Assembly (NCBI RefSeq): GCF_000003815.2
Contig: NC_049991.1
Location: 14,149,357-14,213,356, forward strand
Direction: 5' to 3'
Length of the DNA stretch: 64,000 nt
Origin: Branchiostoma floridae
Lineage: Eukaryota > Chordata > Leptocardii > Amphioxiformes > Branchiostomatidae
Shown here: one piece after another, positions 39,181 to 62,114 of the stretch
How positions within the stretch are numbered: the first letter of the stretch is position 1
Layout of the letters: every line of letters begins with the position of its first letter
The notes under the pieces: model-generated
Database searches by the model: none
What the model was told of the DNA's origin: nothing
The model's input: only the letters and a program-made list of their open reading frames with translations
Made by a program: the position numbers and the translations under genes

Positions 39181-41147
39181 ATGGCTGTACTTGGACGTTC
39201 ACTTCGTCGCTTCACCACCCTGCTTCTTTTTGTCTGCCTCTTCGCGGGCAGGTAGGTAAAAAGACGGTGAAAATGCTTATGTATGGCTTAAAACATCCTT
39301 TTGAGTTTAAAATGCAGATTTTGGGCCAGACAAAAGTTGTTTCACTTTCAATTTATGAGCTGCGTCACGACAAGGAAGTTCATTTTGGTGCAAGGAATTT
39401 TACTTTGCTGCAAACGCTTTCAATAATAGATTTCAAGTAGGTGTACTCGTGCTGAGGCCGAAGGGATATGTACTCAAGGCTACATAAAGGTTGAAAAAAA
39501 CGGCAGAATGATCCATTTTTTGCACACTTTTATTATTTTCTCATAGTATATCTTGGAGAAGGCGCAGAGGCGGATGTACTTGTTCTTGGAACAGTTGGGG
39601 ATCATGGAGCTCGTGTTCTGAACCTTGCGGAAATACCGGTAAAATAGAATCTTTATAAACTCACCTTTATACATACAACAAGTAGCCTAAACCTAGCCGC
39701 AGGGCGTTATTTTCTTTTTTACACGGGCCTAAAAAGTGTCCTACGACACGCCTCGCGTCGAAATTTTTTTTTACCCGTCCTACATTGCCATCCCCAGGGG
39801 AGGGGCCAATTAGCCCCGGAAAGCGGAGTTTGCGTTACGCAGACTAGCCTAGACCATGCGCAGCCCTTATGCGTCGCTAGCGAGTTTCTCATAGTGGCTT
39901 TTTGGGCTGAATTGCCGCCAACCTTCCGAAAAAAATGAACGCTGCTATGTAAACATGAATTGCAAGATAAATCAGGAAACGTTTTTTTTTTTTTTCTGAA
40001 TGACCAAAACAATTTTCCCGGCTAGCGCTGTTGTTTATTATTCTTCAAGGCGCGTATTTGTTTAAGTCTTTCGCTTTATGTCGTCTTGATCGATCTTGAA
40101 CTTGTCATTGTCTACAACTTACCGCTCAAGATGCACAGCTTTCCGTTCGAACGGTGAAGTGATGTTCTTTATTTCACCTAAATACAATGTAAATATCTTA
40201 CTTTAAGGCACGAGGACCCGGACCCGCACTGGTTCCTGCTGTGGTACCGCGGGAACAGAAACTGGAGCATGTAACCGGTTCTGCTACAACAGCGGCACTC
40301 CGTCCGGGAACGGCTGCATCTGTACCTCACAGTACCAGGGGCGATGCTGCGACGTGGACAAACCACAGGGAGATGAATTCAAAGGTGATTATAGTTTTCT
40401 GAAACTTTCCTCCAAATATCTTCTTTTTTTTCAAACAATATTGTCCCAAAACTGCTTTAACCAACTTCATATGTCCCGGTCGTACTTTTTGCCAGCTTAG
40501 ACCTGGAAACTTCATATGCAGCAGCAGTACAATATGGTCCAATATGACTCAGTCAAAGTAAATCTTTTCAGGAATTGTCTGTAAAGCTAATTATAAGATA
40601 TTTGGTTTCATCGACCAAAATGGGTCTATTCAAAGGCAGGTGTAACTAACCATTGCTACTGTGGCAGAGGAGTGGACACGTTGAACTTCGTTTCAAATTG
40701 TCATTACAAACCTTTTGGCTTTTATTGTTTAAGATCATGTGGTACCGTTTTTGAGGGGGGGGGGTCTTAAGTATTGACTATACAAGTACAAGGAAGTTAC
40801 ACTTATCAAATAATGAGAATGTAAAAACTGCACAACTTACTCCAAGACTAGGCCCTCGCGCTGCTCTATAGAATTCTCTCATGATCGTTTGTCGGGCACT
40901 TCCAAAGGGGGCACACGAAATTTTCTATATACGAGATAGACGTTTTGAGTAATGGTTCAACAGCATATGACTTCCGGAAAGGCACACTCGTAATTTTCAA
41001 CGATTCAATTTTTTTACAGGAGGCTCTTCTGAGACCCAGCAGGGTGGCACTACAGTGTCAATCTGGGTGTATGTTGGCGGTGGAGGGGGCACAGGTTCCA
41101 TCATCCTCTTTATCATCATCTACGTTTGCTGCAAATCCTGTGGCTAG
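39181..41147 (+). CDS. Small type-I membrane protein: signal peptide, TSP1-like, EGF-like, TM (family copy 1)
   Basis: Four exons, 39181-39251, 39547-39638, 40208-40384 and 41020-41147 (TAG), give 155 residues with phases 2, 1, 1. Residues 1-23 form a signal peptide (hydrophobic run TTLLLFVCLFAG). Residues 41-60, split across exons 2 and 3, match the start of a thrombospondin type-1 repeat: WGSWSSCSEPCGNTGTRTRT, with W-x-x-W, CSxxCGxG and RxR. Residues 74-100 form an EGF-like knot: CNRFCYNSGTPSGNG, then CIC and GRCC. Residues 128-151 are a membrane helix ending YVCCKSCG, so almost no cytoplasmic tail. An alternative exon-2 acceptor (CGCAG at 39567) keeps frame. Two related genes lie downstream in the same orientation. 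Function is unknown; extracellular adhesion or recognition is an inference from the modules. AATAAA occurs at 41511-41516. Confidence 0.8.
39790..39850. repeat. Dispersed repeat, related to 27600-27655
   Basis: This is a second member of the family described at 27560, here in the second intron of the first TSP1/EGF gene. Confidence 0.55.
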
Positions 41148-41619
41148 ATTCATCAGCACAAGCACGTCGAAATTGTTTAAAACAATGTTCCATACTAGTA
41201 TATCATCAGTAATCACAATTAGGCTCACTGCGCTTAATTACATCAACTGTATGCCGTGATCTTCTACATAACAATGGAACTGAGTATTAGGCAGAACACA
41301 TTCTAGAGGTAATTCCTGTGTGATGACATGATAAGACTCAACTTTTCCGAATGTTTAAAAAGCGTCATGCGATGACATGCATACACTTAACAGAGCATTG
41401 GTAGAAGGAATTATGTAGGCATTTTATGTTTTAAAGATGTGCTCGTAATTACTTTTCGCTGGTCACGTGGAAGTTTCTCTTCCTACTAAGATCATCGAAT
41501 CAATATATAGAATAAATGGGGCATTTTATTTTCAACTGTCTTCAAATAAGAAGTCAAACCCTGTAATAGCTATGTACACTTAGTACCCTATTCTGTATCA
41601 TATGTACGTTCATCCACTT

Positions 41620-41760
41620 AATATTTGTATGTTAGAATTTAGTGTATCTACATGTACTTAGACCACATTCATTCATTCCATGTATTTAGTCTTTCTTCTC
41701 TTGCAATTAGCCCAATGGGCATGAATTTGCAATAAAAATAAAACATTCTAACAGATAAAT
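41620..41760 (+). repeat. Second LINE 3' tail
   Basis: TTAGCCCAATGGGCATGAAT followed by AATAAAAATAAAA resembles the 3' end of the LINE at 38185-38225 (TTAGCCCCAATGTGGCATGAA). It is a 3' truncated or tail-only copy downstream of the first TSP1/EGF gene. Confidence 0.55.
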
Positions 41761-41861
41761 CAAATAACTTTATGTTTTTTGTATCTTGTGCTGTGTGTAT
41801 ACAAGACAAATCAAAGGCTGCTGGCCAGCTGCCATCAAGCCTCCACACCTACGTGCCGCAT

Positions 41862-43015
41862 GGTCTTTTTAGCGAATGCCCACAAACGCCCACTCTAGAG
41901 AAGTCCGCGCTGCACGAATCTCATTTTTTTTGCTTGGAATATGTCCACGTTGTGCTCCCATGTATTAATCCTGAGTTTCAAGTCAATCCATTGACCCGAA
42001 GTGACATAAATCAAAGTTTTCGATTCTCGATGGTCTTTTTAGCGAACGCCCAGCAAAATGTCTTTTTAGCGAATGCCCACTATATCCACAAAAATATCGG
42101 CCGTCGCGCAACGACACCTAAACCTACCGCCACAAACATGTTCAAGATGGTGTCCCATTGATGTGTACGGAGTTTCCGTGCTTTACAAGCATTTTAAGTC
42201 CCTGTTTTTGGTCAAAATGTACGGCGACGATACTACCATACTTTAACTATAGCAATTCAAAATGGCGGGCACTAGTCATGTGACCTCCTTGCGGGACTGT
42301 TCTATAAGTATCGCGGGAGGGACTGTTGTAGCATAGCTTCTCATACAACCATTTTAGAGTGAATTCTGAACAAGATTTTCATTTCATAGTGCTATCATCT
42401 GACTGATATTTACAATGTGGTCATTTTTTCTGTGCTATTATTACCCAGGTTTGAGGAACTTAGTGCAAATTTGGATATTGATTCACCTCAGTGCCCAATT
42501 AATGTACAAAAGGCTCAGACACATTAGTGTTATAAACCTGAATAGGGGCAGGTAACCAATACTAGAAAAACATAGCTATTTATTATTAACAATACTATTT
42601 ACATTATAATAATAACTCTTCACCAAACTGGACTTTTCTTATCTTTATTTATCACAGAAACATTGTTACAATGAGGATTTGATTAGATGAGTATCTGTTA
42701 CAGTGTGTACAAACTTATTTCAAATACAAAAATGTATTTCGTTTCACTTCCTAAATATTTTTAAAGTATTGGAAGAAGTTGACACATAAACAATATTAAT
42801 TGCATTATTTATGTGCAGTAAAATGTGACCACATGCTATCAATAGCCTAATAAAATGTTGGAACATGGCACAAGCGGGCTCCTCTTCTGAGTACAGAAAG
42901 GAAATGTTTTATAACATTTAGTTATGACGTAGAAAATTTCCATTGTAAAATGTACCTTTATCAACATTTACAAACAAATTGTTTTTTTCTCTTCTTAATA
43001 AATGACAACAATACA
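41862..43015 (+). repeat. Left long inverted arm of foldback element
   Basis: It starts GGTCTTTTTAGCGAATGCCC. The block TCTTTTTAGCGAA(T/C)GCCC recurs at about 42033 and 42060, giving three subterminal copies per arm. The remainder is AT-rich and non-coding. Confidence 0.9.
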
Positions 43016-44889
43016 GGTAAGTAAGGTGTGTTTCCTTGACTACAGACTAGGTAAGACACCGTACAGGTGAGTAACGTGTATTTCCTTTGATTACAGACCA
43101 GGTAAGACACCGCACAGATGAGCAAGGCGTCTTTCCTTTGCCTATAGACCAGATAGGGCATTATACAGGTAAGTAAGTTGCTTTACTCACCTGTTTAATA
43201 CCTATCTGGTCTATAGGCAAAGGAAAGTTGCTTTACTCACCTGTATAATACCCTGTCTGGTCTATAGGCAAAGTAAAGACATCTTACTTACCAGTATAAT
43301 GGCCTATCTGGTCTATAGGCAAAGGAAAGACACCTTACTCACCTGTTTAATGGCCTATCTGGTCTATAGGCAAAGGAAAGACACCTTATCCACCTGTATA
43401 ATGGCCTATCTGGTATATAGACAAGGGAAGACACCTTTCTTACCTGTATAATGCCCCATCTGGTATATAGGCGAAGGAAAGACACCTAACTTACCTGTAT
43501 AATACCCTATCTGGTCTACAGGCAAAGGAAAGTTGCTTTACTCACCTGTATAATACCCTATCTGGTCTATAGACAAAGGAAAGACGCCTTACTCACCTGT
43601 ATAATGGCCTATATGGTATATAGGCAAAGGAAAGACGCCTTACTCACCTGTGTAATACCCTATCTGGTCTATAGACAAAGGAAACACACCTTACTCACCT
43701 GTGCGGTGTCTTACCTGGTCTGTAATGAAAGGAAATACACGTTACTCACCTGTATGGTGTCTTACCTAGTCTGTAATCAAAGGAAATACACGTTACTCAC
43801 ATGCACGGTGTCATACCTGGTCTGTTATAAAAAGAAACACACCTTACTTACCTGTATGGTGTCTTACCTGGCCTGTTATCAAAGGAAATACACGTTACTC
43901 ACCTGTATGGTGTCTTACCTGGTCTGTAATCAGAGGAAATACACGTTACTCACATGTACGGTGTCTTACCTAGTCTGTAGTCAAGGAAACACACCTAATT
44001 CACCTGTACAGTGTCTTACCTGGTCTGTACTGAAAGGAAATACACGTTACTTACCTGTACGGTGTCTTACCTAGTCTGTCATAAAAGGAAACACACCTTA
44101 CTCACCTGTACGGTGTCTTACCTGGTCTGTAATCAAAGGAAATACACGTTACTCACCTGTACGGTGTCTTACCTGGTCTGTGAACAAAGGAAATACACGT
44201 TACTCACCTGTATGGTGTCTTACCTGGTCTGTAATCAAAGGAAATACACGTTACTCACCTGTACGGTGTCTTACCTGGTCTGTTATAAAAGGAAACACAC
44301 CTTACTTACCTGTACGGTGTCCTACCTAGTCTGTAGTCAAGGAAACACACCTTACTCAACTGTAAGGTGTCTTACCTGGTCTGTACTGAAAGGAAATACA
44401 CGTTACTTACCTGTACGGTGTCTTACCTAGTCTGTTATAAAAGGAAACACACCTTACTCACCTGCACGGTGTCTTACCTGGTCTGTAATCAAAGGAAATA
44501 CACGTTACTCACATGTACGGTGTCTTACCTAGTCTGTAGTCAAGGAAACACACCTTACTCACCTGTACGGTGTCTTACCTAGTCTGTAATCAAAGGAAAT
44601 ACACGTTACTCACCTGTACGGTGTCTTACCTAGTCTGTAGTCAAGGAAACACACCTTACTCACCTGTACGGTGTCTTACCTGGTCTGTAATCAAAGGAAA
44701 TACACGTTACTCACCTGTACGGTGTCTTACCTGGTCTGTAATGAAAGGAAATACACGTTGCTCACCTGTAAGGTGTCTTACCTAGTCTGTAGTCAAGGAA
44801 ACACACCTTACTCACCTGTACGGTGTCTTACCTGGTCTGCTATAAAAGGAAACACACCTTACTTACCTGTACGGCGTCTTACCTGGCCG
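43016..44889. repeat. 51-bp minisatellite core (about 36 units), first three units inverted
   Basis: The typical unit starts CACCTGTACGGTGTCTTACC and continues to ACACGTTACT. From about 43180 rightward all units run in one sense, with a CTATCTGGTCTATAGGC variant class to about 43690 and a CTTACCTGGTCTGTAATC class after it. From 43016 to about 43175 three units run the other way, meeting at a small palindrome (ACAGGTAAGTAA / TTTACTCACCTGT). As 51 is a multiple of 3, long open frames arise by periodicity. Confidence 0.92.
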
Positions 44890-46041
44890 GTATTGTTGTC
44901 ATTTATTAAGAAGAGAAAAAACAATTTGTTTGTAAATGTTAATAAAGGTACATTTTACAATGGAAATTTTCTACGTCATAACTAAATGTTATAAAACATT
45001 TCCTTTCTGTACTCAGAAGAGGAGCCCGCTTGTGCCATGTTCCAACATTTTATTAGGCTATTGATAGCATGTGGTCACATTTTACTGCACATAAATAATG
45101 CAATTAATATTGTTTATGTGTCAACTTCTTCCAATACTTTAAAAATATTTAGGAAGTGAAACGAAATACATTTTTGTATTTGAAATAAGTTTGTACACAC
45201 TGTAACAGATACTCATCTAATCAAATCCTCATTGTAACAATGTTTCTGTGATAAATAAAGATAAGAAAAGTCCAGTTTGGTGAAGAGTTATTATTATAAT
45301 GTAAATAGTATTGTTAATAATAAATAGCTATGTTTTTCTAGTATTGGTTACCTGCCCCTATTCAGGTTTATAACACTAATGTGTCTGAGCCTTTTGTACA
45401 TTAATTGGGCACTGAGGTGAATCAATATCCAAATTTGCACTAAGTTCCTCAAACCTGGGTAATAATAGCACAGAAAAAATGACCACATTGTAAATATCAG
45501 TCAGATGATAGCACTATGAAATGAAAATCTTGTTCAGAATTCACTCTAAAATGGTTGTATGAGAAGCTATGCTACAACAGTCCCTCCCGCGATACTTATA
45601 GAACAGTCCCGCAAGGAGGTCACATGACTAGTGCCCGCCATTTTGAATTGCTATAGTTAAAGTATGGTAGTATCGTCGCCGTACATTTTGACCAAAAACA
45701 GGGACTTAAAATGCTTGTAAAGCACGGAAACTCCGTACACATCAATGGGACACCATCTTGAACATGTTTGTGGCGGTAGGTTTAGGTGTCGTTGCGCGAC
45801 GGCCGATATTTTTGTGGATATAGTGGGCATTCGCTAAAAAGACATTTTGCTGGGCGTTCGCTAAAAAGACCATCGAGAATCGAAAACTTTGATTTATGTC
45901 ACTTCGGGTCAATGGATTGACTTGAAACTCAGGATTAATACATGGGAGCACAACGTGGACATATTCCAAGCAAAAAAAATGAGATTCGTGCAGCGCGGAC
46001 TTCTCTAGAGTGGGCGTTTGTGGGCATTCGCTAAAAAGACC
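44890..46041 (-). repeat. Right long inverted arm of foldback element
   Basis: This is the reverse complement of the left arm, ending GGGCATTCGCTAAAAAGACC, with the same three subterminal blocks. Confidence 0.9.
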
Positions 46042-46055
46042 CTCCCCCTACGTGC

Positions 46056-47015
46056 AAGCATGTTCAAACCTCGCCTGGCGGGGAACAACAGACGATAAAC
46101 CGGATAGTTTGAATGACATAACAGTAAACTACGTGTTGGTGGTCACGTTTTAAGTGTAAGGAATCAACGTGTGTTCAATAGAAAGGAACATATTTTGAGA
46201 AATGTAATTCTGTTGGTCTTAAGTCTGTTTGCTGCAAAACAATGCTTTCTGTAATTGTGTGTAAGTTGTGTTTAACTTTTTTTGTCAAAACAACGCTATC
46301 TCCTGAGATACAAACCTCCTGGATTAAAGATAGACCTAGAATATCGAGGTATTCGGCTGCTTTGTATCTCCGCAGGTTATTTAGGTTGGCGAGGATTCAA
46401 AGGCTCAGTATGTGATGTGAATGTATAATCGGATGATCGGACACGGCATTCGCGAACACAATGAAGATACGTTTTTTGTACGCGCTCTGTCTAACAAGCG
46501 AAAACCACAGGATATACTAATATAATAGCGTAACATAATCTCCAAGTATATCTTGCAGTGGCATAAGATAATAACATAAGCTGGGGAAGGAGTTTACTTG
46601 GCCACCACGAAGCGCGGAGTGAATGCTTATCATGCGGCCAACGCAAGATCTACTTGGAGATTAAGCGCGGACGCGTTTGGGCGCTTGGATTTCAAAGAAA
46701 GCCTTAACCATTGCACTCATTGTCTCTTATGTATTTAATATGCGACTAAATTCTCCCACAGTGACATCTAGAATCGTTCATATTACAAAGTCAGGTGGGC
46801 AGGTGCGTTTGCGTTTTGATGCTGTAGCTCAGCAGGTACTAGGTGGGTTCAGAGGTGAGTTCAGAGTTCACTAGACGGATTATGATGGCGTTAGAGCTCT
46901 CACGGCAACCATTTTTCTTAAAATCTCCAGCTTTAGCTGAGATAATAAAGCACAGCAGGATTGTAGGTTAGTGTGAGAAGTGAGCGTATGTTACTAGTAC
47001 TAGTAACGTTATAGT
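46056..47015. other. Intergenic region with one MITE
   Basis: Apart from the TAATCTCCAAG-family MITE, no feature is firm. A short frame from ATGATGGCG (46883) to a donor-like GTTAGT (46967) could be an upstream exon or leader of the next gene, but nothing confirms it. Confidence 0.4.
46537..46663. mobile_element. MITE, TAATCTCCAAG family, copy 2
   Basis: The ends TAATCTCCAAGTATATCTTG and GATCTACTTGGAGATTA match the family at 13688, and both share CAGTGGCATAAGATA near the left end. It is about 127 bp long and lies 500 bp right of the foldback element. Confidence 0.85.
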
Positions 47016-48551
47016 ATGAAGAGACGAAGCTTACATCGGATAGAATCATCAGAATCCGAAGAAGAATCGGCACCCGGAAGCGAAAGTGCTGATGAGAAGG
47101 TGAGGCTGTGATATTACGACTAGACTTTATTCCGAATCATAAACAGGACAGAGAGTGGAATAGTTACCTTAACATCGCACGTACAGTTTGTTGTATTATT
47201 ATTATTTCACTTCGCTATACAGCCTTTACACTTGGCGTCATTTGCGCTATGTTGTTTAGTGCCACGGTACGTCTCTTAACACGCCAACCATTGCTGCTGT
47301 AACCTAATTACCCACCAACATGCTTCCCCCCTTCCGGATTCACGGTGAACGCCAATGAAAATCAAGCCTCTAATGTTTAATGGCAAGATATGAAAGATGA
47401 TAACCTTGATAAACAGATTATAATCTTGTACAAAAGGGGCGTCAAAACAATACGTAATTGGGGGTGTAATTTGTAATTATATTGCTGAATGAAAAACAGT
47501 AACGTAAATGACCCTATCAATTTTGCTACCCAGCGGAGCTCAGCTCGTCTGAAGACCAGAGCAAACCGCCAGTTCCGGCTCCCCAGCAGGGATGAGGTGT
47601 TCGGCCGCATCGTTCCACAGGACAGCAAAGAGACGCCCAGCAAAAGTCTGGCCGAGCTCAGGCCAAGGAAGCTTGTCAACAACTTCCTAAAAGTGTAAGT
47701 ATCTATTATTCCTGGAATAAACAGGTTTTGGAATTTTACTGCCATCACTTCAGTTCAGTCATCAGTAGAATATGAAATGTGGCACACTATTACTATGAAG
47801 TTGTTGATTTCACATCAAACTGGCAAAGAATCCTTTAGTTGTTACATGAAATATGATACACCACCATGGCCGAAGTTCGCAATGCAGGATGGCCATGTGC
47901 ACAATAGTTTAGGAGGTTAAGGTACTCTCTCATCTGTTAAGTTGGAGATCGCTATCTTCTCCTGTCTGTCCACAAGTGGCCCAAGAAGGTCAGAATTCTT
48001 TTCCTCCAACCTCTGCTTGAAGAGGAGGTGAGGGCACAAAATATATAATCATGAATATGTTATGCTCTTGTAGGAACAACAGATACAACTACGACCCAGA
48101 CTACACAGACTCGGACTCTTCCCTGGGTGGTTTCTTAGTTGACGAGGATGAGAAGGAGGAGGAAAAGAACTCAACTAGTGATGGGGAAGACAATTCAAGC
48201 AGTCAGACAAGTTCATCATCCTCCGAGGAGGAAGAAAGTCACAAACACAAACAGAGGTCACGGGGAAAGCAGAAGTCACGTGACCTCAGAAAGAGGAAAC
48301 TATTTGCTGAAGAAACAGATAGTGAGGCTGGTGATCATGAGGAGGAGGAAGAAGTGTGCAGGACAACAAAGAGGAGAAGAAGGCGACAGTCATCTTTCCT
48401 TGATGACAGTAGTTCAAGTGAAGATCTAGCTGAAGGAGGGAGGAAAAAATCAGACAGAGTGAAGTCACTGAAAAGAAAGAAAAGAGAGCAAAACTTTTTT
48501 GAAGAGTACAGGGTAAAGAGAGCTCTCCGAAAGGCAAAAGTAAAGGATTAA
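47016..48551 (+). CDS. Acidic/basic low-complexity, probably nuclear protein (240 aa)
   Basis: Exons 47016-47099, 47534-47694 and 48074-48551 (TAA) join in phase. The protein begins MKRRSLHRIESSESEEES. A central non-repetitive stretch of about 50 residues follows (RLPSRDEVFGRIVPQD, then LRPRKLVNNFLKV), then DPDYTDSDSSLGGFLVDEDE, long Ser/Glu runs, and basic clusters (KRRRRR, KSLKRKKR) that look like nuclear localisation signals. The composition recalls chromatin-associated disordered proteins, and the GGFLVDEDE type motif occurs in proteins such as CCDC82, but I cannot assign a family. AATAAA lies at 49116-49121. Confidence 0.7.
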
Positions 48552-49708: not shown

Positions 49709-49780
49709 AGTTTTGACTGACTGCTGGAATTTAATAGGCTACGTGCCGGGCGATTCTGGAAAATTCTGAAGTTGTGCAAG

Positions 49781-51451
49781 ATGGCTGCGCTCGGACGTCC
49801 ACTTCGTCTCTTCACTCTGCTGTTCCTCCTGTTCTGCCTCTTTGTGGGCAGGTAGGTTAGCAGGGATTGTCTGTAATATTTCTTAGAAAAGTCGGAGAGT
49901 TTTGATCTTTTGATCATGTGAATTCTGAACAGAATGAAAAACTTTTTTCTTTCAATTTACCAACTGCGTCACGGGCAAAGTCCTGTTGCTTGCTGTCCGG
50001 AGAACTTTTCAATAGATATCCAGAATGTACGCGAGAGATTTTTTTCTTCTGTTTTTCCTGAAGTACATCAGGGGGGAGGCATTCTAGAGGGTGTTCGTGT
50101 CAGCTTGGAGCTTGGGGACCGTGGAGCGCGTGTTCTGCACCGTGTGGAAACAGTGGTAAGGGAAGAGCTGAGCATCAAAAATTGCTGCATCTATTTGTAC
50201 AGAAAAAGTTTGATCTTTGTTTGGTAAATTGTAATGTAAAGACTTGATCATTGTATACAACAGGATAGTTGAGTAGGAATAGTCACATTGCGGAATGGGT
50301 CTGAATCACAGTACCAGTACCTCGCTTGACAAATGGGGGTCTTAAGTTAAGAAGGCTTTTTAATCATGAACTGCACAGAACGAAATTTCACAATATTGCA
50401 TGCAAGTAAGGCTAGATCTCAGAATGCATCCGTACTGAAGATGAAGTTTAATAAGTCACGCGTACATTTCCAATAATTATGTTTTCGTCCTGTTGCCAGG
50501 CACAAGATCTCGCTACCGCACTAACTACTGTTGTAGTGTGGAGGGTTCGTCAACGCAGTGGGTGACGAATTCATGTAACCGGTTCTGCTACAACAGCGGC
50601 ACTCCATCCGGTAACGGCTGCATCTGTACCTCTCAGTACGAGGGACGATGCTGCGACGTGGATAAACCACAGGGTGGTGGAGGTGATATAAAATTTAGAT
50701 TAAGTTGTTTCTATCTAAAGTGCTCATATCAATGATTTTAACCACCAAGCATTTCAAGTTTAATGAAAGATGAGGTGCAGATAACTATCATTTTGTATGC
50801 GTCTATTACGAATATATTTACGGTCTTGTTTTGTTGGCGGCTTGGTACAGGGCACTATTCATAGGAACACTTCAACATTTCCAGGAAACAGTTCACCGTG
50901 TGTGACCACGCTGAGTTTGTTTTGGCTCAACTATCACAATGAGGGACATATCCAGCCTTGTAATGTGCGCTTTATATGAAATGGAATGTTTACAGTCGTT
51001 TAAAATAATCAAATTCTTGATACCCCAAGCCGGACAATGAAACATTCACCGTGGTCCGTAATAGTGTTTAGACCCACTAAAGAGACGTCCATCACACAAA
51101 ATATATCCTGTTGCAACAACATCCCAATTACTCATTATGAAAAACATTCCCTGTTTGAGCAAGAGATTTCCAAGATACTATCTTTGATTATCATCATTTA
51201 CATTTGTTGTTGGACGGTGTTTCTCAAAGTAATAATATCCTACAGATTTCCTGATGATAAAGTGAGGAATAGATCCCCAAACGCTCAGCTTATTCAAAAT
51301 GTTCTTTACAGGAGGCTCCGGCTCCATCAACATTCACCAGACGCAATCGCAGTCGCAATCGCAGACGACCGTTATTGTTGTTGTCGTTGTTGTCATCGTC
51401 GTGGTCATAATCATTATTGTTGCCGTGGTTCTTGGAATAAAATTTTGCTAG
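49781..51451 (+). CDS. Small type-I membrane protein, TSP1-like/EGF-like/TM (family copy 2)
   Basis: Four exons, 49781-49851, 50088-50155, 50500-50682 and 51312-51451 (TAG), give 153 residues with the same intron phases as copy 1. Residues 1-23 are a signal peptide (MAALGRPLRLFTLLFLLFCL). The TSP1-like part WGPWSACSAPCGNSG is followed by TRSRYR. The EGF-like part CNRFCYNSGTPSGNG is identical to copy 1 over this stretch, then CIC and GRCCDVDKPQ. The juxtamembrane segment is GSINIHQTQSQSQSQ. The helix (about 128-149) is almost pure Val/Ile and ends GIKFC. The last exon thus diverges far more than the EGF exon. AATAAA lies at 51795-51800. An inverted CCAAT pair sits 75 to 150 bp upstream of the ATG. 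Confidence 0.8.
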
Positions 51452-51839: not shown

Positions 51840-52899
51840 ATGTGGTGGTTACTTAGCTGCTTTGCACCACTGAAAGTTGAGTTCAGGGGCAGCATCTGTA
51901 CCTCTCAGTACGAGGGGCGATGCTGTGACGTGGCAAAACCAGCAGGAGGTAACGTACTAGTAGTTGCTTTAACAGACATTGAAAAATGGCGTGCTAATAA
52001 AGGAACGCAACTTATTACACGACCTGTAATTCCTAAACTGACCTTTTGAAAGTGACGATCTTCTCTTCCTGGCAGCTTTAAAAAGTGGCGTCGTGTGTGG
52101 CGTAACTGGTAGAACGTTCGGCTTGTAATCCATAGGTCCCGAGTTCGATACATGCCGTGCCTACGACGTTGTGCCCTTGAGAAAGGCACTTTACACGGTA
52201 CCTGACTTCGATCAGGGAGGTAAAAGAAAGAAAGAACTATCTTCACCTTCTGTCTGTACTGTGTATGTGGCACTGTTAATATAAGGTACTAAAAGTCTGT
52301 CCAAAAGTAAACAGAAAAAGCAGGTGACTTGGAACCATGATTGAAGTCAAAAACATTTCCAGGAAAAAATAGTTAAGCTTACTTGAAAACGCAAAGTGTG
52401 TTTAAATGCTGATAAAAATGCCATGGTCTCTATTGTAATCATTGTTGGGGGACGAATCGCCAGGCTTTAATACATTGTCACCGCTGTAGTGATTGCATCG
52501 CTTTTCACGAGTAAACTATTTGAGAGAATCTATCTAAATTTATTTCGACCTTATCTTTTATACTGTATACAGTAAGGTCTTCCTGTGTACAAGTTGGCCC
52601 AATGTCAAAATTCAAGTTGACCACGCGTAAATTTGTGGCTAAATCTCCCCTTTTTATAGGAGACATCAACATCATCCAGCAAGGAGGCCCCAACAACGTC
52701 AACATTAACAACCAACAAGGTTCTAACAACGCAAACATTAACCACCAGGGAAGCTCCAGCACCGTTCACCAGACAACGATCCTGTCGAGAACCAACAAGG
52801 TCGTTATCGGCGTCACTGTCACTCTCTCTGTCATCGTATTGTTGGTGCGGTAGTCATGGTCTTCCTCATCTTTGTTTGCTGAAAATGTTGTGGATAGGT
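51840..52899 (+). pseudogene. Family copy 3, decayed TSP1-like/EGF-like/TM gene
   Basis: Two recognisable pieces remain. 51887-51948 encodes the end of the EGF-like module (CTSQYEGRCCDV), but CNRFCYNSG is lost and the acceptor phase does not match the family. 52660-52853 encodes a longer juxtamembrane region rich in Asn/Gln/Gly, then a hydrophobic stretch that stops early at TAG 52851. In a neighbouring frame the helix continues as VVMVFLIFVC and then meets TGA where copy 1 has TGC, followed by KCCG and TAG. So there is one frameshift and one nonsense change. No signal-peptide or TSP1 exon was found. A short two-exon product from the ATG at 51840 is conceivable but unlikely. Confidence 0.65.
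52088..52230 (+). mobile_element. tRNA-derived SINE
   Basis: A-box-like TGGCGTAACTGG and, 35 bp on, B-box-like CCCGAGTTCGATAC sit in a tRNA-like head (GTGTGGCGTAACTGGTAGAA). The body follows with TGCCCTTGAGAAAGGCACTT, a segment I associate with SINE bodies in deuterostomes. It is inserted in the intron of the decayed family copy 3. It is not a functional tRNA: the cloverleaf arms are degenerate. Confidence 0.7.
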
Positions 52900-55517
52900 T
52901 CATATCAAACAAACAAACAAATCAGAAAATATCAGAGCTTACAAAAGGACGATACATTTGCCAGTTCAATCAGTTTGATTTTGTTTTTGTCCGCGTGTCT
53001 CACTCTGTGATATAAACGATGACAATGTTTTATTCGTATGAAACATACATAGTAATAAGAGCACTTCTAGAAAAGAAAATATGTGTATGCACAATAATGT
53101 CATGTTTGGAAAAGCAAACACATTTTAACCACGGGTGCGTGAGAAGCATTAGTAAAGCACTATTGACAACCCTTACTAAAGTTTGTCGTTGGTATGGCAA
53201 TGTTTGTGGGAGTTGTAACGATCCGATCCGTGAACGTGCAGAGCTTGCAATTGAATTACATAAACGCAAACTATCATTATCAACTGTCGATTTGAGTCGC
53301 TATTCCTACACATGTAGTAATCGCATCTCCAGACATTCACCTCCGCCGTTGTTTATTTGAACCCGAATTCATGTTACCAATAAATCGTAGCGGTTGCAGC
53401 TAGAAAGTTGTCATTTTTCAAGTTGTCATCACTTCATACAGTAATAGCGAGAGTCCAAAGTGAGACAAAGGTCACTGAATGATGAAGGTCAGATGGAAGG
53501 CCGACGCGGCTTCAACACTTTGACGTTGCGTGTGTAGTTTGTTTGTCAGGGGTCAACTAACGACACAAAGGCCGCATTGGCAGAGCAACTTTGAAGTTTT
53601 GTTATACTGGGTACCCTTGAAATTTTTAATCTTTGTACAGTCAACATGTCATCTAACCCACCTGCACAATAACGTTTATCATGAGTTAGTATCGTGCACG
53701 TGAACATGCCATGACTGTCATGGTTACCAATTCAGCGTTCCTGGAATGAATCAAAGACACAAAAGGAAGGGTCGCCTCTGGGTCGCCTTGGTCAGGGTAA
53801 ATATTTCCAGGAATAGTTTTATCATGTGTCGGACCAATTTAAATTTGTTTTGTCTCGGCCATCACTTTGTTCTTTTCAATGGCCAATAACAAGTCCAAAG
53901 TACTGTACTTATCTGACATGATGCGCATTTTTAGTCATGTGCAATGTCCCATGCAAGCAAAATACACAACATGCTGAGGACAGAAAAACGGTCAAAGTAC
54001 CAAGCTCTTTACTTATCATGATATAAACTTAGCTAGTAGATACTACACGTGTTCAAGTGTAAGTAGGAAGCAGAGGGTGGCTTGACGACGAGAACACTGC
54101 TAAGCTGGAGGCACTCTCTCCTAACCATGACGTGCGACACCTGAAAGTACACTGGGAAAATGTGCACTTTGTGCATTCTATGCCTGAATTCCATACCTGA
54201 AAGGACATGACACTGGTTCTTGCCATATCTGCCAAATTTCCAGCTAAGTTATGTAGGTTAGCGTAAGAAGTGAATATATGTATCTAAATCTAGATTGAGT
54301 AAGGAGATGGCCCATGATTCATTTCATAGTTGAAAGAAATGCAGAGTACTCTATTGTTCAATTTGAAAATAAAATATACAATACTGTAGATAAAGTTAAT
54401 TTGTGTTATGGTGATTAAAATAAACAGTTGCCAAAGGTAAATGCAATATGTAAATATATGTCGATATGCTCTATTGCATTACATTGTATATGATGGATGG
54501 AATTAGAAAAATGGAAGAAAGAAGGATCTTCAGTTTTGATACCGTTTCCAGGCGAACCGAAAAGAAAGTAAGTTTCACAGTGTGGACGTCTAAATTCCTT
54601 AGATTCTCTGACTGGAATGATGCTCAGTGACAAATAATTGCATGATACAAAACATGATCTACTTTTGATATTTGTCGCAATAAAGCAATACACACGCTCA
54701 AAGTCATTTAAGGACAGGCAATTAGCAAGGGATAATCCGCTAAGGATCAGCAGGCGTCCGTGGCCTAGTGGACGTTAACCCACGTGAAAGACATCGACCT
54801 CTGCGATATTCACCGATCGGACGTTGACCTTTGCCTTTCTTTTGTTGTTCATTGAGATCTGGGTACCATTTTGCGTAGGGGCCCTGGTCTGAGAGAGGGA
54901 AGTGCGTAATACTCCGGTGAGCTTTTTTTTTCCTTTATACCAATGATAGTGCATACATGGGAATGGAAAGGAAAGTACATGTATAAAGGTCATCCTCCCA
55001 TTTCAGTGGTGCCGTAAACTATGTAAACCACCTTGTTGGTGATCTGGCGGGACAGGAAAGCTACCATGACGACAATTCCGTATGCGTTAGCCGAGGAGGT
55101 TTGCTTTAGCCATAGCCATATCCAGTAGGTACATAGGGGTGCATTTTGCTACAAAAACATACTGTAGTTTTTACGTAGGGGCAGACAATCAATCAACGAC
55201 AAACTGTTACCAAGGATACGACGTCATCTAACGTTTGACTGAGTCGAAGGATTACATCATAGATCATTACACATTTGTGTTGACGTCTAGCCGTGGCGTA
55301 TGGTCCTCCACAGGGGAATGGCCAAAGTTCAGTAAATGTTTACACTGGGAGGGGGGCAACTTCATGGTGACATCGCAAACGGATTATGAACAAATCGCAT
55401 GTGCACCGTTACGCCAATAACGAATAAAATAAAGTACCCTTTCCCAGAATGAATGTAACTACAAATACAATCCTGTATTTCAGACATTATAAGAACTGTG
55501 AGAGAACAGACAGAAGC
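52900..55517. other. Intergenic region upstream of the P450
   Basis: I see no supported gene in these 2.6 kb. A weak tRNA-like patch near 54751 (GTCCGTGGCCTAGTGG) has an A-box shape but no convincing B box. Confidence 0.5.
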
Positions 55518-58500
55518 ATGACGTCTCCTGCAGACCACCTGTTAGACCTGCTGGACATCCGTGTGACCTTGGTGCTCCTGTTACTCCTACTCGTCACCTA
55601 CTCCTACTCCAGACGTCCCAGGAACCTCCCACCCGGACCCTGGGGCTGGCCTGTCGTGGGAAGCCTGCCGAGTCTCGCCTGGGTAAACAACAGACCTAGT
55701 TCTGGCCTCTATCAGGCTTAACACATGTCGCTGGAAATAGTAGAAAATGGCATATAACGTTATAGACAGATAACACACCAAAGGAGTTTGACCAGCCCAA
55801 AACAGTTAGCGAGGAAGAGCCTGGTCTGTAGGGAGTCGCCATCTTCAAACGATATAAAAAAAGTACTCCCTATGTCGCAAACTGTAGTTTGGGCAGACAT
55901 CTGGTGTTTATTCCTGTGTATTTGTGTAGTCTGGTAGAGGCTAACGTAGTTCATGCATCCCAAGCGTAACAAGGTCGAAGCAACATGAAAATACGATATA
56001 AACACATGTTTGTACTCTAGTCATTTCAACTTACTGTGCTAAGATTTACTGTCACTTGAGAGAACTGCATTGTGCAATGTGAGAGAACTGAGAGATTTCC
56101 GCCTTTTTTTGCAGAGCCAGAATCTCCACCTGGACTTCATGGACTGGCAGAAGAAATATGGACCAGTCACATACTTCCGTATGGGGATGCTGGTTAGTAT
56201 GACATTTTAGACACAGCAGATATAAAAGTTCTTGAAAATTGTTGTTTACCTTTGATGGTAAATAGTATCATAACCGACAATTGCGTCAAACAGATATCCA
56301 GGCTTTTGAGTGTACGGTCAGATTTGCGGTCTTTTCCAGAACGACTGACTCAGCGACATATGTGACCTACCATATGTAACATTTGTGTTGCATGTCAGAG
56401 ACCCGGTGGGTCAGATAACTCGGGTGATGCCGTAGATTTGGCCCGAAAAACGGAAAACATTCATTTCTAACACCACGACTGCGTTATTCCAACTTTACTG
56501 GCTCAGTGATTATACTGTCTGTGTATGTTATCAATGATTAAAAGACTTACCAGTGGCACCTCACAGAGGATAAACTGAACTGAAACGATTATCGTGCAAT
56601 GCTTCACGTGTACTCTCATTGGCTTCAGGATGCTGTAGTGCTCGGGGGTTATGACACCATCCGACAGGCCATAGTGAAGCAGTCCGAGGTGTTCTCTAGC
56701 AGACCCGCTCACCTAGTGGTCCTGAACAAGATGTCGAAGAAGAAAGGTGTGTATGAAATTTTAACTATGAAGCCGTAGAGATTTAAAATCGTTGGATCCT
56801 TAGATACAAATGGCCGAAGTTCTTATGGTTCAGATAAGCGGTCTGGAAATTACGGAAAGTCTATCAAATCTTCAGGTCTGTCTTAACCTTTTACGCAAAG
56901 AATTATAACGTTCATCAGAGTCATACTTAACAGATATTTTCCGCATTTCCGTTGACAGGTATCGTCATGGCTCCGTCCGGTCCGCTCTGGAAAGAGCAGC
57001 GAAAGTTTGCCTTAACAACTCTGAGGAGTTTCGGCTTCGGGAAGCGAAGTCTGGAGGTGCAGATATCGGAGGAGACCTCAGCCTTGCTCGAGCAGATCCG
57101 GAACATTGGTGACAAACCGTTCAACATCACCAGGCCGCTGCAGAAGGCAACAACCAACATCATCAGCTCCATGGTCTTCGCACATCGCTTCGAGTATGAC
57201 AACCCCCAGTTCTTACAGTTCATGCAGGACTTTGACGACATTGCTGCAACCAACTTTCTAGCCATGCCTGAGAACATCCTCCCTTTCCTGCAATATGTCC
57301 TGGACAGTGGGAGCAAAGTAAGACAAAGTCACAAAACTAAAGTATTATTCGGGAATCATACAAATCATTATCGAGCCATCAATTGCAAAAACTTCAGGAT
57401 TTGGAATAGTGTTGATATAGCATTCAGATCTTTTAATCAAATAAGCTACCCATCGCACACCATTTTTTTATCTAATGAAAACGTACCTTTTAAGAGCAAA
57501 GCAAAGGAAAGGACAAAGCTTCATGATCTTTGATTGTTTTCCCAGGTGATTAAGATATCACAACGTCTTATCAACTTTGCCCAAGCAAAGATCAAGGAGC
57601 ATCAGCAGACGTTTGATCCGAACGACATCCGTGACTTCATCGACTCTTATCTGTTGGAGATGCAGGCCCAAGACCAGCTGAGTGACACTACCTTCACAGA
57701 AGAACAGCTGGTTATGACAGTGCTTGACTTATTCGTAGCGGGCACTGAAACTACGACCACCACCCTGCGATGGGCAAGCCTGTTGATGTTAGTGTACCCG
57801 GATATTCAGCAAAAGGTACATAGAAACCTTAGCAGTACATTGAAAACACGTCAGGTCGTACATGCATCTTGTAACATCGAACAGAATTGTGATGTTGTAC
57901 TTGAAGCATCACAACGCCGCGGTCTTTTCTAGACAGCACTTATTCTTGTCATCACTTCTCAGGGTCGTTTACAGCTAATTTCATGAGGCCCTTCTTCATG
58001 ATCAGGATAACGAATGTTATGTACATTTTTTGCGACCGCAATCACAGACTGGTGTTTGCATAATTATTTGATCCAATCAAAGAATTCTGATAATCTTCTT
58101 AAGCTTATCCAACAGCCTTGCCCTAAACACAGAACTTACAGTAATGTCTATGCCTGACGTCCTGTTTCTAACCCACAGGTCCATGAGGAGATTGACAGTG
58201 TTCTGGGACAGGGCCAGACCCCGTCCATGTCCCACCGTGACCAGCTGCCCTACACACAGGCTGTCCTGACGGAGGTCTCCAGGTTTGCAACTATCGTTCC
58301 CCTGAACGTGCCTCATACCACATCCGAGGACACCACCCTGAATGGGTAAGATGTTACAATAACATGGTGAACATGTAGAAGTAGAGATTGAAGATGTCAA
58401 TCGACACTCATGGATCAGCTTACAATACTGATGATTTTGCTTCTCAACGTAAGACGTTTTTTAATGGTTCCTGATAAAACGATCGGTTGATTGTCTTTGG

Positions 58501-59350
58501 AAAGACGACTGTCGTTGTTGAAGTCAAGCAAACAAAAACTCTCGCTTCCTTGAGCTCACAAAACCCTGTCTCGTTCCAGATACCACATTCCCAAGCAGAC
58601 TATCGTCATCCCCAGCATCTGGTCCGTCCATCACGACGAGAAGCTGTTTCCTCAACACGACAAGTTCGACCCCTCCCGTTTCCTGGACGAGAATGGGCAG
58701 TACAAGAAGGACGATCACGTCATGCCATTTTCCGCAGGTTTGTTCAATCAATAATCTATTATATAATAACAATAGTTATATTTGAAAGCACATTAGGTGT
58801 CATTCCCTCCGCCACAATGAGTATTCACTAATAATGATCCGTTCGAATTCTGTTCTTGTGTGTGAGTTGGGTGTGACGTTCATGAAGTTACTAGACGTCT
58901 AGTCTTCATAGCAGGCTCTCTGGGCCTTTTTTGGCTTCTTTTGTTGGCCATTTCTTTTTTTTTCTTGGTATCTGATTGCCAGCCGTCGCTAATTACTGGG
59001 CCCCTAGTAATCAGCGACGGCTGGCAATCAGTGACCAAGGAAAAAAAAAAGAAATGACCAGAAAAAGTGTATTACCCCAGAGAGCCTGCTATGGAGGCTA
59101 CTAGACGTCGACTGTTCGAGAAAGGTTTGTCACGTATACAGCATTGTATGCTGTTTATTTCTCTCCAGGACCGCGTATCTGTTTGGGTGAGCAGTTGGCA
59201 AGGATGGAGCTCTTCCTGTTCTTCACTTCGCTCATGCAGCACTTCACTTTCAAGATACCAGAGGGCGCCCCTACACCATCTCTGAAAGGACGCATCGCAG
59301 CCACACACTTCCCAGAGCCTTTTGACATAGTCGCCGTGGTCCGTGACTAA
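55518..59350 (+). CDS. Cytochrome P450, CYP2 clan, complete (498 aa)
   Basis: Eight exons, 55518-55682, 56115-56192, 56629-56746, 56959-57317, 57546-57815, 58179-58345, 58580-58737 and 59169-59350 (TAA), join in phase to 498 residues, the usual P450 length. An N-terminal membrane anchor spans about 14-31. The proline hinge PPGP is at 38-41. The C-helix motif WKEQR is at 131-135. The I-helix oxygen-activation motif AGTETT is at 305-310. The K-helix E-x-x-R is E362/R365. The PERF-like FDPSRF follows, and the heme loop FSAGPRICLG has the thiolate Cys443. All catalytic landmarks are present. It should be an ER monooxygenase using P450 reductase; [13 protein letters not shown] and the exon layout favour CYP2 (CYP2U/2J/2R-like), but substrate and subfamily cannot be read. 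AATAAA lies at 59854-59859. Confidence 0.95.
58889..59114. mobile_element. Hairpin MITE in the last P450 intron
   Basis: The outer arms carry CTAGACGTCTAGT-type ends, then TAGCAGGCTCTCTGGG (58909) mirrored by CCCAGAGAGCCTGCTA (ending 59091). The inner arms GATTGCCAGCCGTCGCT and AGCGACGGCTGGCAATC are perfect complements. The whole element of about 226 bp folds on itself. It ends about 55 bp before the last exon. Confidence 0.85.
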
Positions 59351-59853
59351 AGCAACACGTTATTACCTACCACAAAAGAGGTTCTAATCAAGAGTGCTTG
59401 TTTGTCTGTAAACAAAATAACTGGTAACATAGATGACTAGATGAATTCCTACTATATTCTAGGTGTGTGTAGGGGAGGGCTTTGCTTAAAAGGAACAGGT
59501 GATTGGGTTTGTTGGAAGATCTGTCTTACTGGATTTGAACTCTTTAAGGTTCCTGTTGTGAAGGTGTTGCGCTGTTACGCTAGAGGAAGCTTCTTAACAA
59601 TAACTGTAGTTCTCAGTGTTTTAGTGGGCTTCTGTTGATCCCTCAGTATAGTACCGATCCTGCTTAAACAGTTTGCAAAAATGTAACTTAACCTCAATTC
59701 AAAACCGAAACGATTGTCTTACAAACAACTGTAAATGCTGACGTCTTGAAGTCTGAACAGTTTTAAATAGAGTGTTTACAGCTCCTTTATAATGCGAGTT
59801 GGAGTGCTAAGCTAGTATTCAGTATACAACTATACATTGAATGTAAATCTGCT

Positions 59854-59918
59854 AATAAAACCAGTGCCGTCACAAATCAAAGGACAACATAGTGGTTAAT
59901 GCACCCTCAAGATTTATT
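59854..59918. terminator. Facing poly(A) signals of the P450 (+) and ZP-like gene (-)
   Basis: AATAAA on plus at 59854-59859 and AATAAA on minus at 59918-59913 face each other, so the two transcripts end within or across a few tens of bases. Confidence 0.65.
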
Positions 59919-60032
59919 TACTTTGTAATGTAAATCAAAAGTTGAATCAAGAAGTGTGGAATAATCAGCAGTGAGGACAACCTGCTGTCTGGCACGGCAT
60001 CTTTTCGTGCTCGTGTGTGAGACTGGGTCCCC

Positions 60033-60384
60033 TCACTCTGAGTCGGTAGAGGTAACTGCATGGTACAGGGGGCGCTGCTGCCGCTTCCTGATGGCCACAC
60101 CCACCGCCATGAGGAGCACACCGCACAGGAACCCTCCCACAACCAGCAGGCCTGACGTCACGGGGCCCCAGCCCTTCTCACCTGTAGCTGTGCAGACAGA
60201 AACCTGCATCACAACGAATTAACATTTCTCTCGTAAGATCTAACATAAAATGGCGTAACAGGGTGGTTAAATAGTCACGTTTTAAATGACCCCAGGTAAT
60301 ACATATATGTTTCCAAGGAGACTAAAAATACCTCCTTGATCTATCTATGTGCATCTATATATCTCTCTCTATCTATCGATCTAT

Positions 60385-60416
<32 letters not shown>

Positions 60417-60636
60417 AAGGAAAAATAGCAGAACATACTGGATAGAACATTGAGCTTGCTATTAATACAGAAACAATTTTACGACAATAAACATATCAGA
60501 AAGCATGGCGACGCACCCTTCCCGTGATACACCGGAGGTCCCTGGGAGATGAAGTGGCGACCGGTCATCGGCAGCTCCCTCTTGCTCCTGGCATCGTTAC
60601 TGCAGCCCTGGGCGCACCGCGAGGTCGGATCGGAAG
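60033..60636 (-). CDS. ZP-domain membrane protein, C-terminal exons (5' part not found in window)
   Basis: Exon 60636-60517 encodes SRCAQGC followed by ARSKRELPMTGR. This is the C-x-x-G-C end of a zona-pellucida domain followed by a furin-type RSKR site. Exon 60187-60033 (or 60181, a six-base acceptor choice that keeps frame) encodes the membrane helix SGLLVVGGFLCGVLLMAVGV, a basic stop-transfer RKRQQR and a short tail ending STDSE before TGA at 60033. This layout (ZP end, cleavage site, TM, short tail) is standard for ZP proteins, whose ectodomain polymerises into extracellular matrix after cleavage. Upstream exons should lie further right on the minus strand; I could not locate them within the window. 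Confidence 0.7.
60337..60417. repeat. (ATCT)n microsatellite
   Basis: Imperfect ATCT repeats become perfect toward 60384-60416, within the intron of the ZP-like gene. Confidence 0.95.
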
Positions 60637-61050
60637 CTTTGCGAAAGAAACCTTATAGCATTGTCAAACCGAGTAGCTGATAAAAGCTTGTTGCATTTGC
60701 TTAGTGATTCACCTTTCTTCAAAGATCTTCAATAAGGAAGATGCGTTAAAACCCAATCTACATATTGCGCCCAAAGTTCAGGGTCTCCTGCACAGGCTTT
60801 TTCAATACTATCACGGTTCCTTTCCTGCTCTCAATGCAAACTCAAAGCACCAAACACTAAGACGTGTCAGCTACCTATCCAAGTCGCACGCACTATTTTA
60901 ATAAACCTGACCTGACGCGGAATAATATCAATGTGTACACAGGCACCAAGCCGGGGAACTCCAACATTGGTTGATCGAATACTGTTCTGGTGGACGTACA
61001 GGCTGAGTAGAGGATTTCCATCAAGTGAATTGGGATTACTGAGGTGGAAG

Positions 61051-62114
61051 ATGGCTGTGTTTTGGCATCGTCATCTGATGATCTTGATCCTCATTTGCTG
61101 CTTCTTCTCGGGAAGGTAGGTTACAACAAGGAGGTTTTATCAGTAGGTTACAGTGCCTCCAGTAGGTTCCGGTCGACAGTGATCGGCCTCGGCAATGGGC
61201 GCCCTGAGCTGAGGAAAGTTCAACACTGGTGCTCTTTAGTGCTGAACGGCCTTTTCCATTGCTGAAACCTGCTCAGGTGTTATCATTGCATTTCCTGTGA
61301 TAAACATAAACCGAGTAGTGGTTTTCCAGGGCTTAACTCCTCTCAGCGCTCCGGGTCACCAGTGCGGAATGTCGGCACAGCGGCGACCAGCCTGTTCAAA
61401 GGTCATTCAGCACTGCAGATAACAGCCGTCAACACTGGAACCTGATATAACCAGCTCTGGATTTCCAGTGCTGGCGTTTATAAAGAAACCAGCAAGGTCT
61501 TATATGACCTTATATCATGTCCCTGGAACCAGTGACTTTTTTTTCCTTATAAACCCAGTCCTGAACGTAATTTTATGTACCATGTGCCCGTTACCCTGGT
61601 TACCAGACTTTAATACCAAGGCATGCCCGCCGATGTAGAAACGAGCTGCAGGTACCAGGCCATTTCGTTGGCCTGGCAACCATGGTATGCTGCCTGTATC
61701 AGTTATCAATTAGAAAAAAATGATTTTTGATATTACATACAGCGCCTTGAGACCATGTCTAGCAGAGAATGACAGTGTTGGACTTCCAGTGCTGATGATC
61801 ACTTGCTAAGAAAGGAGGCAATTGCTTCAGATTGTCATGGGCATAATGTTACCTGACCCTGATCCTTCTACACCCAAATTTGGGGATTCTGCAGAAAATG
61901 TATCTTTCAATGTATACTCAATGTTTACTCAAGTGGTCCTCCCTCGAACGCCTGGATTATGAGTAACTAGCAACAGAATATACAGAGCTTTCTAACATTT
62001 TATACCAATTTATCTTCTGTCTTTATTCCTTCTAAAGCGGATTGTTCCGCCGGCGGCGGCGGAGGATGTCGCCTGGCTTTCAGCCAGTATGTATTGCTAA
62101 CTGTGAAAACACTG
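61051..62114 (+). CDS. Family copy 4, 5' part (signal peptide exon and reduced TSP1-like exon)
   Basis: Exon 61051-61115 encodes MAVFWHRHLMILILICCFFS and ends in phase 2 with the same GG(A/C)AG/GTAGGT donor context as copies 1 and 2. Exon 62038-62114 encodes an arginine run and then FQPVCIANCENTG, ending in phase 1 with NTG at the border exactly as in copy 1 (EPCGNTG). The first TSP1 tryptophans are gone. No EGF or membrane exon was seen before the right edge, so the gene continues outside or is truncated. Confidence 0.5.

What the first reader, a model, noticed from the sequence alone, without database searches (positions are those of the whole stretch)
39181..62114. Tandem family of tiny TSP1-like/EGF-like single-pass proteins
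Four same-strand copies share a signal-peptide exon, TSP1 start split by a phase-1 intron, a CNRFCYNSGTPSGNG EGF exon and a membrane exon. The EGF exon is nearly invariant between copies 1 and 2 while the juxtamembrane and membrane exon has diverged strongly (GGGGGTGS-type, then SQSQSQ, then Asn/Gln repeats). I do not recognise this architecture as a described family. Constant head with variable tail is a pattern seen in recognition or adhesion sets.
Basis: partly seen in the sequence, partly recalled or inferred. Interest (0 to 1): 0.75.

Follow-up and report, generated by a model that had tools for sequence, protein, structure and literature searches.

The report
Tethered TSP1-EGF proteins, lancelet-like genome
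Two small genes, plus leftovers of others, encode proteins with a two-domain outer head on a short membrane anchor; relatives of that head appear in front of quite different bodies elsewhere in the same genome, which looks like an example of the exon shuffling already known from lancelets.

Summary
Copies 1 and 2 are complete four-exon genes (155 and 161 aa) with identical intron phases. Copy 3 is a relic: half the EGF exon plus a tail exon. Copy 4 is doubtful: a borderline signal-peptide exon, an unsupported TSP1 exon, no EGF exon found. The host genome (513 Mb, unnamed) was searched: the head, a signal peptide then TSP1 fused to an EGF-like fold, matches about 40 places on 11 contigs, two of them these genes. 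In 13 of 13 heads tested the only donor behind the EGF part is in phase 1. Bodies seen behind heads differ: WAP plus anchor, Sushi, calcium-binding EGF, an unnamed domain. The near-invariant EGF block (1 of 34 residues differs) is not intrinsic constraint: against the closest outside paralog 15 of 34 differ, as in the rest of the head. Local gene conversion fits best but is not proven. What varies is linker and anchor, so a variable-recognition reading is not supported. Most likely these are membrane-tethered adhesion or docking proteins, the head-plus-anchor version of a family spread by 1-1 exon shuffling. No expression or structure data were obtained.

The parts
39181..39251 (+). Copy 1 exon 1: signal peptide (MAVLGRSLRRFTTLLLFVCLFAG), ends phase 2
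   Evidence: splice model; 65% identical to copy 2 exon 1; same 71-bp length and phase in paralog P
39547..39638 (+). Copy 1 exon 2: Arg run and first half of TSP1 (W..W..CSEPCGNTG), ends phase 1
   Evidence: family profile E 9.9e-14 (copy 1 is one of the 14 rows of that profile)
40208..40384 (+). Copy 1 exon 3: rest of TSP1 fused to EGF-like CNRFC..CIC..GRCC, phase 1-1
   Evidence: profile E 1.4e-20 (copy 1 is one of its 10 rows); PS00022 pattern (recalled) at 40315, one of two matches in six frames of the window; only donor found is phase 1
41020..41147 (+). Copy 1 exon 4: Gly-rich linker, hydrophobic anchor, CCKSCG end, stop
49781..49851 (+). Copy 2 exon 1: signal peptide, ends phase 2
50064..50155 (+). 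Copy 2 exon 2: first half of TSP1, ends phase 1
   Evidence: spliced copy 2 matches Pfam TSP_1 with 23.7 bits, cut-off 21.6
50500..50682 (+). Copy 2 exon 3: TSP1 end plus EGF-like, phase 1-1
   Evidence: 94% identical to copy 1 over 103 bp
51312..51451 (+). Copy 2 exon 4: GGSGSINIHQTQSQSQSQ linker, Val/Ile anchor, stop
51888..51948 (+). Copy 3 relic: 3' half of EGF exon (GSICTSQYEGRCCDVAKPAGG), phase-1 donor kept
   Evidence: 88% and 90% identical to copies 1 and 2 over 59 bp; E 0.0014; borders
52660..52853 (+). Copy 3 relic: Asn/Gln/Ser-rich linker and short hydrophobic stretch, stop
   Evidence: phase-1 terminal exon; borders; weak match with the copy 2 tail, E 0.002 to 0.007, low-complexity filter off
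61051..61115 (+). Doubtful copy 4 exon 1: MAVFWHRHLMILILICCFFSG with GTAGGT donor
   Evidence: score 34 against 32 for the best background candidate
62038..62114 (+). Doubtful copy 4 exon 2: Arg run and C..NCENTG end, TSP1 tryptophans absent
   Evidence: read by eye; not listed by the family profile at E <= 20

Best explanation
Copies 1 and 2 encode small type I membrane proteins: a signal peptide, a compact cysteine-rich head in which a TSP1 repeat runs straight into an EGF-like fold (shared CNRFC), a low-complexity linker, one membrane-spanning segment and a tail of a few residues. They are the shortest members seen of a larger family in this genome, in which related heads stand before different bodies, most likely spread by 1-1 phase exon shuffling. 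The head most likely binds matrix or cell-surface glycans or proteins, as TSP1 repeats do, so the protein works as a tethered adhesion or docking molecule; the anchor only needs to be hydrophobic and drifts. The EGF blocks of copies 1 and 2 have been homogenised, probably by gene conversion; copy 3 has decayed. Shown: gene structure, the family, phase-1 ends of the heads, different domains behind them, the outgroup contrast. Inferred: topology, binding, adhesion role, shuffling and conversion as causes.
For: Gene models with matching phases. Head matches in the host genome: 21, 40 and 47 rows in three searches, which merge to 67 exon-sized places or, within 2.5 kb, 40 loci on 11 contigs, 2 of the 40 in this window. 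Paralog P (C1:24.89 Mb, best match outside the window) has the same 71-bp exon 1 and head phases 2, 1, 1, then two copies of an unnamed domain, and an anchor exon 3 kb on. C11:14.74 Mb splices to head + WAP + membrane segment + PPPPY tail (WAP E 7.7e-8). Sushi (E 2.9e-12) behind the C1:18.84 head; calcium-binding EGF exons behind C12 and C11 heads. With donors of all three phases allowed, 13 of 13 heads tested have a single acceptable donor behind the EGF part, in phase 1. EGF block: copies 1 and 2 differ at 1/34 against 21/55 in the rest of the head (p 1e-4), but versus P at 15/34 against 21/55 and 15/34 against 24/55 (p 0.66, 1.0). A lysine or lysines follow the hydrophobic segment in copies 1, 2 and P. 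Lancelet 1-1 exon shuffling is in print (PMC4284660, one section read).
Against: No transcript, protein or structure evidence. The synonymous contrast expected from conversion is in the right direction (6/21.7 against 21.3/41.0) but not significant (p 0.11), so lineage-specific selection remains possible. Copy 1 does not match Pfam TSP_1, and neither copy matches a Pfam EGF family, at E <= 1. Bodies were sought only as phase-1 exons, so their phase is no independent evidence; linkage to the head is mostly by position and strand. No body was recognised behind the C15 heads or the C1:8.81 head. In P the first body exon has a weak donor (gttcgt) and its frame meets a stop two codons later, so P could end there. 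Head exon structure varies: C11:14.74 has its TSP1 intron in phase 2, and C4, C9 and C15 heads lie in one exon.
Confidence: 0.58

Rival explanations
1. Membrane-bound growth-factor precursors: the EGF-like part is released by a protease and signals through an EGF-type receptor.
For: Small type I precursor with an EGF-like part near the membrane; PS00022 pattern (recalled) present in both copies.
Against: The EGF part shares its first cysteines with the TSP1 (read from the alignment); no Pfam EGF match at E <= 1 in either copy; related heads stand before WAP, Sushi and calcium-binding EGF exons, not a growth-factor setting.
Confidence: 0.12
2. A recognition or allorecognition set with diversifying ectodomains.
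For: Multigene and clustered; linker and anchor diverge strongly.
Against: In the window the head is constrained (EGF block dN/dS 0.04, rest of head 0.39); the varying part is linker and anchor; only two usable genes.
Confidence: 0.08
3. The cluster is decaying: the copies are non-expressed relics of a longer P-like gene.
For: Copy 3 truncated, copy 4 fragmentary; no match to P's body exons in the window at E <= 0.5; an inverted-repeat element of about 4.2 kb lies between copies 1 and 2.
Against: Copies 1 and 2 keep open frames, splice sites and a very low dN in the EGF block.
Confidence: 0.15
4. GPI-anchored rather than transmembrane.
For: Small ectodomain, short C-terminus.
Against: A lysine follows the hydrophobic run in copies 1 and 2, three lysines in P; by recalled rules GPI signals end hydrophobic.
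Confidence: 0.1

Closest known systems
TSP1 repeat proteins (Pfam TSP_1; thrombospondin-1, F-spondin, properdin, complement C6, circumsporozoite protein)
   Same: W..W..C...CG.G...R.R start; the family profile matches PDB chains of circumsporozoite protein fusions (E 5.8e-6, best), thrombospondin-1 (1.6e-5) and C6 (0.0065)
   Different: Here the repeat runs directly into an EGF-like fold through CNRFC and, in the window genes, is followed at once by an anchor
Lancelet proteins made by 1-1 phase exon shuffling (PMC4284660)
   Same: Phase-1 exons and extracellular domains in new combinations
   Different: The held main text has no occurrence of TSP, thrombospondin or EGF; supplements were not looked at
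EGF-CFC and other small EGF ligands (recalled)
   Same: Short membrane-tethered EGF-like proteins
   Different: TSP1 part instead of CFC, atypical cysteine spacing, other bodies in the family
Thrombospondins proper
   Same: TSP1 and EGF-like domains together
   Different: Members share the TSP_C domain (PMC3927612, passages); copies 1 and 2 end at the anchor

Membership tests
TSP1 repeat (Pfam TSP_1) | score above the curated cut-off | tested here: inconclusive
   copy 2 passes (23.7 against 21.6), copy 1 has no TSP_1 match at E <= 1; 15 of 19 modules match TSP_1 at E <= 0.1
EGF-like domain | Pfam EGF-family match | tested here: not met
   none for copies 1 and 2 at E <= 1; among 19 modules hEGF matches 3, best E 0.003
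EGF-like domain | PROSITE PS00022 signature (pattern recalled) | tested here: met
   one match in each of copies 1 and 2, the only two in six frames of the window; copy 3 has none
TSP1-EGF head family of this genome | TSP1 start running into CNRxC..C.C..C | tested here: met
   copies 1 and 2 align with 17 chosen modules, 15 invariant columns; the rows were picked by genome matches and by patterns for W..W..C and C.C, so invariance there is partly by choice
TSP1-EGF head family of this genome | complete head in copies 3 and 4 | tested here: not met
   copy 3 half an EGF exon only; copy 4 no EGF exon found
Thrombospondin family proper | TSP_C domain | tested here: not met
   Pfam scan of both spliced proteins lists none at E <= 1
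Variable recognition repertoire | diversified ectodomain over a constant anchor | tested here: not met
   EGF block dN 0.013, linker and anchor saturated at synonymous sites with dN 0.63
Single-pass membrane protein | experimental topology | not testable with these tools
   only hydropathy: 17-residue means 1.99 (copy 1) and 4.31 (copy 2)
Made by 1-1 exon shuffling | module borders in phase 1 | tested here: met
   donor behind the EGF part phase 1 in 13 of 13 heads tested, all phases allowed; acceptors of the bodies were not tested free of phase

The most novel reading that the evidence does not exclude
Signal peptide + Arg run + fused TSP1-EGF is a mobile N-terminal cassette that lancelets have placed in front of many unrelated extracellular bodies, acting as a common targeting or docking tag (for example to glycosaminoglycans of mucus, cuticle or basement matrix), with the window genes as the cassette on a bare membrane anchor.
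Probability: 0.3. Interest if true: 0.55.

Novelty: new variant of a known kind. Interest (0 to 1): 0.36.

Why it matters
It offers a compact, testable case of one secreted head reused by exon shuffling: a minimal head-plus-anchor form, a longer sibling with the same first three exons, and relics in the same cluster. If the head is a docking tag, one binding assay on copy 1 or 2 would inform the whole family.

Tried and rejected
Four equal copies: rejected. Copy 3 as an alternative last exon of copy 2: its phase would allow it; without transcripts it cannot be told from a relic. Intrinsic constraint as the reason for the invariant EGF block: not supported by the outgroup contrast. P's body exons hidden in the window: no tblastn match at E <= 0.5. 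PMC9395347 (tunicate phenol oxidases with TSP1 and EGF; passages) and PMC3543715 (lancelet egg-coat proteins; passages): not this family. Some weaker rows in the 67/40 count may be ordinary TSP1 domains; (24 rows) was not added. The tblastn table was cut in view; only rows seen are used. No structure model was obtained: the machine was busy each time.

Mended on checking: the 40 loci include two in this window; bodies were sought only as phase-1 exons, so one search was run with all phases allowed for the donors behind the heads; the confidence of the best explanation was lowered from 0.60 to 0.58 for the weak donor and stop in P. In the alignment the last residues (REF, RES) of the C4, C9 and C15 rows read past the donor into the intron (tested in five of those rows' loci); the conserved columns named lie before it. 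In one search protein 10 I joined the two exons of L030 by eye; the borders printed suggest that the join skips about two residues before VEAQ and that the intron there is phase 2.
Full report
What was checked. Copies 1 and 2 were spliced from the window: 468 and 486 bases including the stop, open from ATG to stop, GT/AG splice sites, end phases 2, 1, 1 in both. Self-comparison of 38.5-64 kb with blastn at E <= 1e-3 finds copy 1-copy 2 similarity only at exons 1, 2 and 3: introns and exon 4 have diverged beyond detection by that search.

Copies 3 and 4. Copy 3 consists of the last 20 codons of the EGF exon with a phase-1 donor and, 0.7 kb on, a phase-1 terminal exon. No signal-peptide or TSP1 exon was found before it. 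Copy 4 has a signal-peptide-like exon that scores just above background (34 against 32; rank 4 of 230 candidates in 518 kb counting both strands, behind copies 2 and 1 and P) and an Arg-rich exon without the TSP1 tryptophans that the family profile does not list at E <= 20. No EGF exon was found after it in the window or 20 kb beyond; the best downstream profile match has E 1.2 (the profiles contained copies 1 and 2, not 3 or 4).

Rates by segment. Between copies 1 and 2 the 34 codons CNRFC to PQG have 6 synonymous and 1 non-synonymous change (dS 0.35, dN 0.013); exons 1, 2 and the first part of exon 3 together have dS 0.93, dN 0.37; the end of exon 3 plus exon 4 is saturated at synonymous sites, dN 0.63, on a forced alignment. 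Special constraint on the EGF fails a test with an outgroup. P at C1:24.89 Mb, the best match outside the window, differs from copies 1 and 2 at 15 of 34 EGF residues each, no slower than the rest of the head (21 of 55 and 24 of 55; p 0.66 and 1.0), whereas copies 1 and 2 differ at 1 of 34 against 21 of 55 (p 1e-4). Residues are treated as independent in these tests. Conversion of the EGF block followed by purifying selection fits best; the synonymous contrast alone is not significant (p 0.11). Against a simple story, copy 1's TSP1 exon is closer in protein to P (4 of 21 differ) than to copy 2 (9 of 21), with synonymous sites saturated toward P.

The family. The window lies in G000, 513 Mb in 431 contigs, unnamed; size and content suggest a lancelet, perhaps Branchiostoma floridae (recalled, not tested). 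The EGF exon finds 21 matches, signal peptide plus TSP1 start 40, a C15 module 47, a C11 module 24. The first three lists merge to 67 exon-sized places, or 40 if places within 2.5 kb are joined, 2 of them in this window, on 11 contigs, with dense groups at C4:5.03-5.11, C15:17.08-17.20, C11:10.73-10.82 and C12:16.12-16.13 Mb. The tool calls such counts lower bounds; some weak matches may be ordinary TSP1 domains. Nineteen chosen modules align with 15 invariant columns, among them C, N, R and C of CNRxC; partial modules and the split heads other than copies 1, 2 and P were mostly not put into that alignment. Many members have 4 to 8 arginines between signal peptide and TSP1; P has none and copy 2 no run.

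Domain identity. Copy 2 passes the Pfam TSP_1 cut-off, copy 1 does not match it. 15 of 19 modules match TSP_1 at E <= 0.1; a C11 member, joined by eye, matches profile positions 1-45 of 49 with E 3.9e-10, ending in CNRIC. The EGF-like part matches no Pfam EGF model in copies 1 and 2 at E <= 1 but has the PS00022 signature (recalled), found only twice in six frames of the window. A PDB profile search gives TSP1 proteins at the top and a fibrillin-1 EGF match at E 0.028. So TSP1 is sound for the family, and the EGF-like label rests mainly on the cysteine pattern.

Bodies. With donors of all phases allowed, the only acceptable donor behind the EGF part was phase 1 in 13 of 13 heads tested, the two window copies included. 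Bodies themselves were sought only as phase-1 exons. C11:14.74 Mb splices to head + WAP (E 7.7e-8) + membrane segment + PPPPYEAWT end; its TSP1 intron is phase 2, unlike the window copies. P splices to head + two copies of an unnamed domain of about 100 residues (one was scanned: no Pfam match at E <= 0.01), with an anchor exon 3 kb on; the first body exon has a weak donor, and its frame meets a stop two codons later. A Sushi exon (E 2.9e-12) lies behind the C1:18.84 head; calcium-binding EGF-like exons lie behind heads at C12:16.13, C11:19.11 and C11:10.79 Mb (one of these exons was scanned). Behind the C9 head are two Cys-rich stretches without a Pfam match above cut-off. No body was recognised behind the C15 or C1:8.81 heads. 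In the C4 group heads are mixed with exons of another EGF-bearing protein, linkage not established. P shares with copies 1 and 2 the 71-bp exon 1 and the phases of the three head exons, so the window genes look like P without its middle.

Interpretation. Lancelets are reported to have extreme exon shuffling biased to 1-1 phase exons (PMC4284660; one section read; passages). The window family fits that process. The likely work of copies 1 and 2 is to hold a TSP1-EGF head at the cell surface; TSP1 repeats commonly bind matrix and glycans (established knowledge). The tail keeps its hydrophobic character and a following lysine but not its sequence, as expected of a simple anchor. The listings of eight paper searches showed no description of this family; the library lacks most subscription papers and no supplements were read.

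Noticed in passing
41862-46041: Inverted repeat with arms of about 1337 bp, 96% identical, enclosing a 51-bp tandem array of some 33 copies (43012-44886): probably a fold-back element between copies 1 and 2.
   Followed up: partly
55518-59350: Cytochrome P450 gene on the + strand between relic copy 3 and doubtful copy 4 (Pfam p450 E 3.3e-24 for one exon; ends read by eye).
   Followed up: partly
238-795 (-): Minus-strand open stretch with a weak NYN match (E 3.7e-4, below cut-off); MARF1-like by recall.
   Followed up: no
L011 5649-5951 and 6492-6848; L026 45-1395 (-): Unnamed domain of about 100 residues, repeated, in two loci that also hold TSP1-EGF heads; the one copy scanned has no Pfam match at E <= 0.01.
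   Followed up: partly
G000 C11:10809642-10814523: Four head matches with equal score, spaced 1626 to 1628 bp: looks like a young tandem array.
   Followed up: no
58894-59109: Imperfect palindrome of about 220 bp, apparently inside a P450 intron.
   Followed up: no
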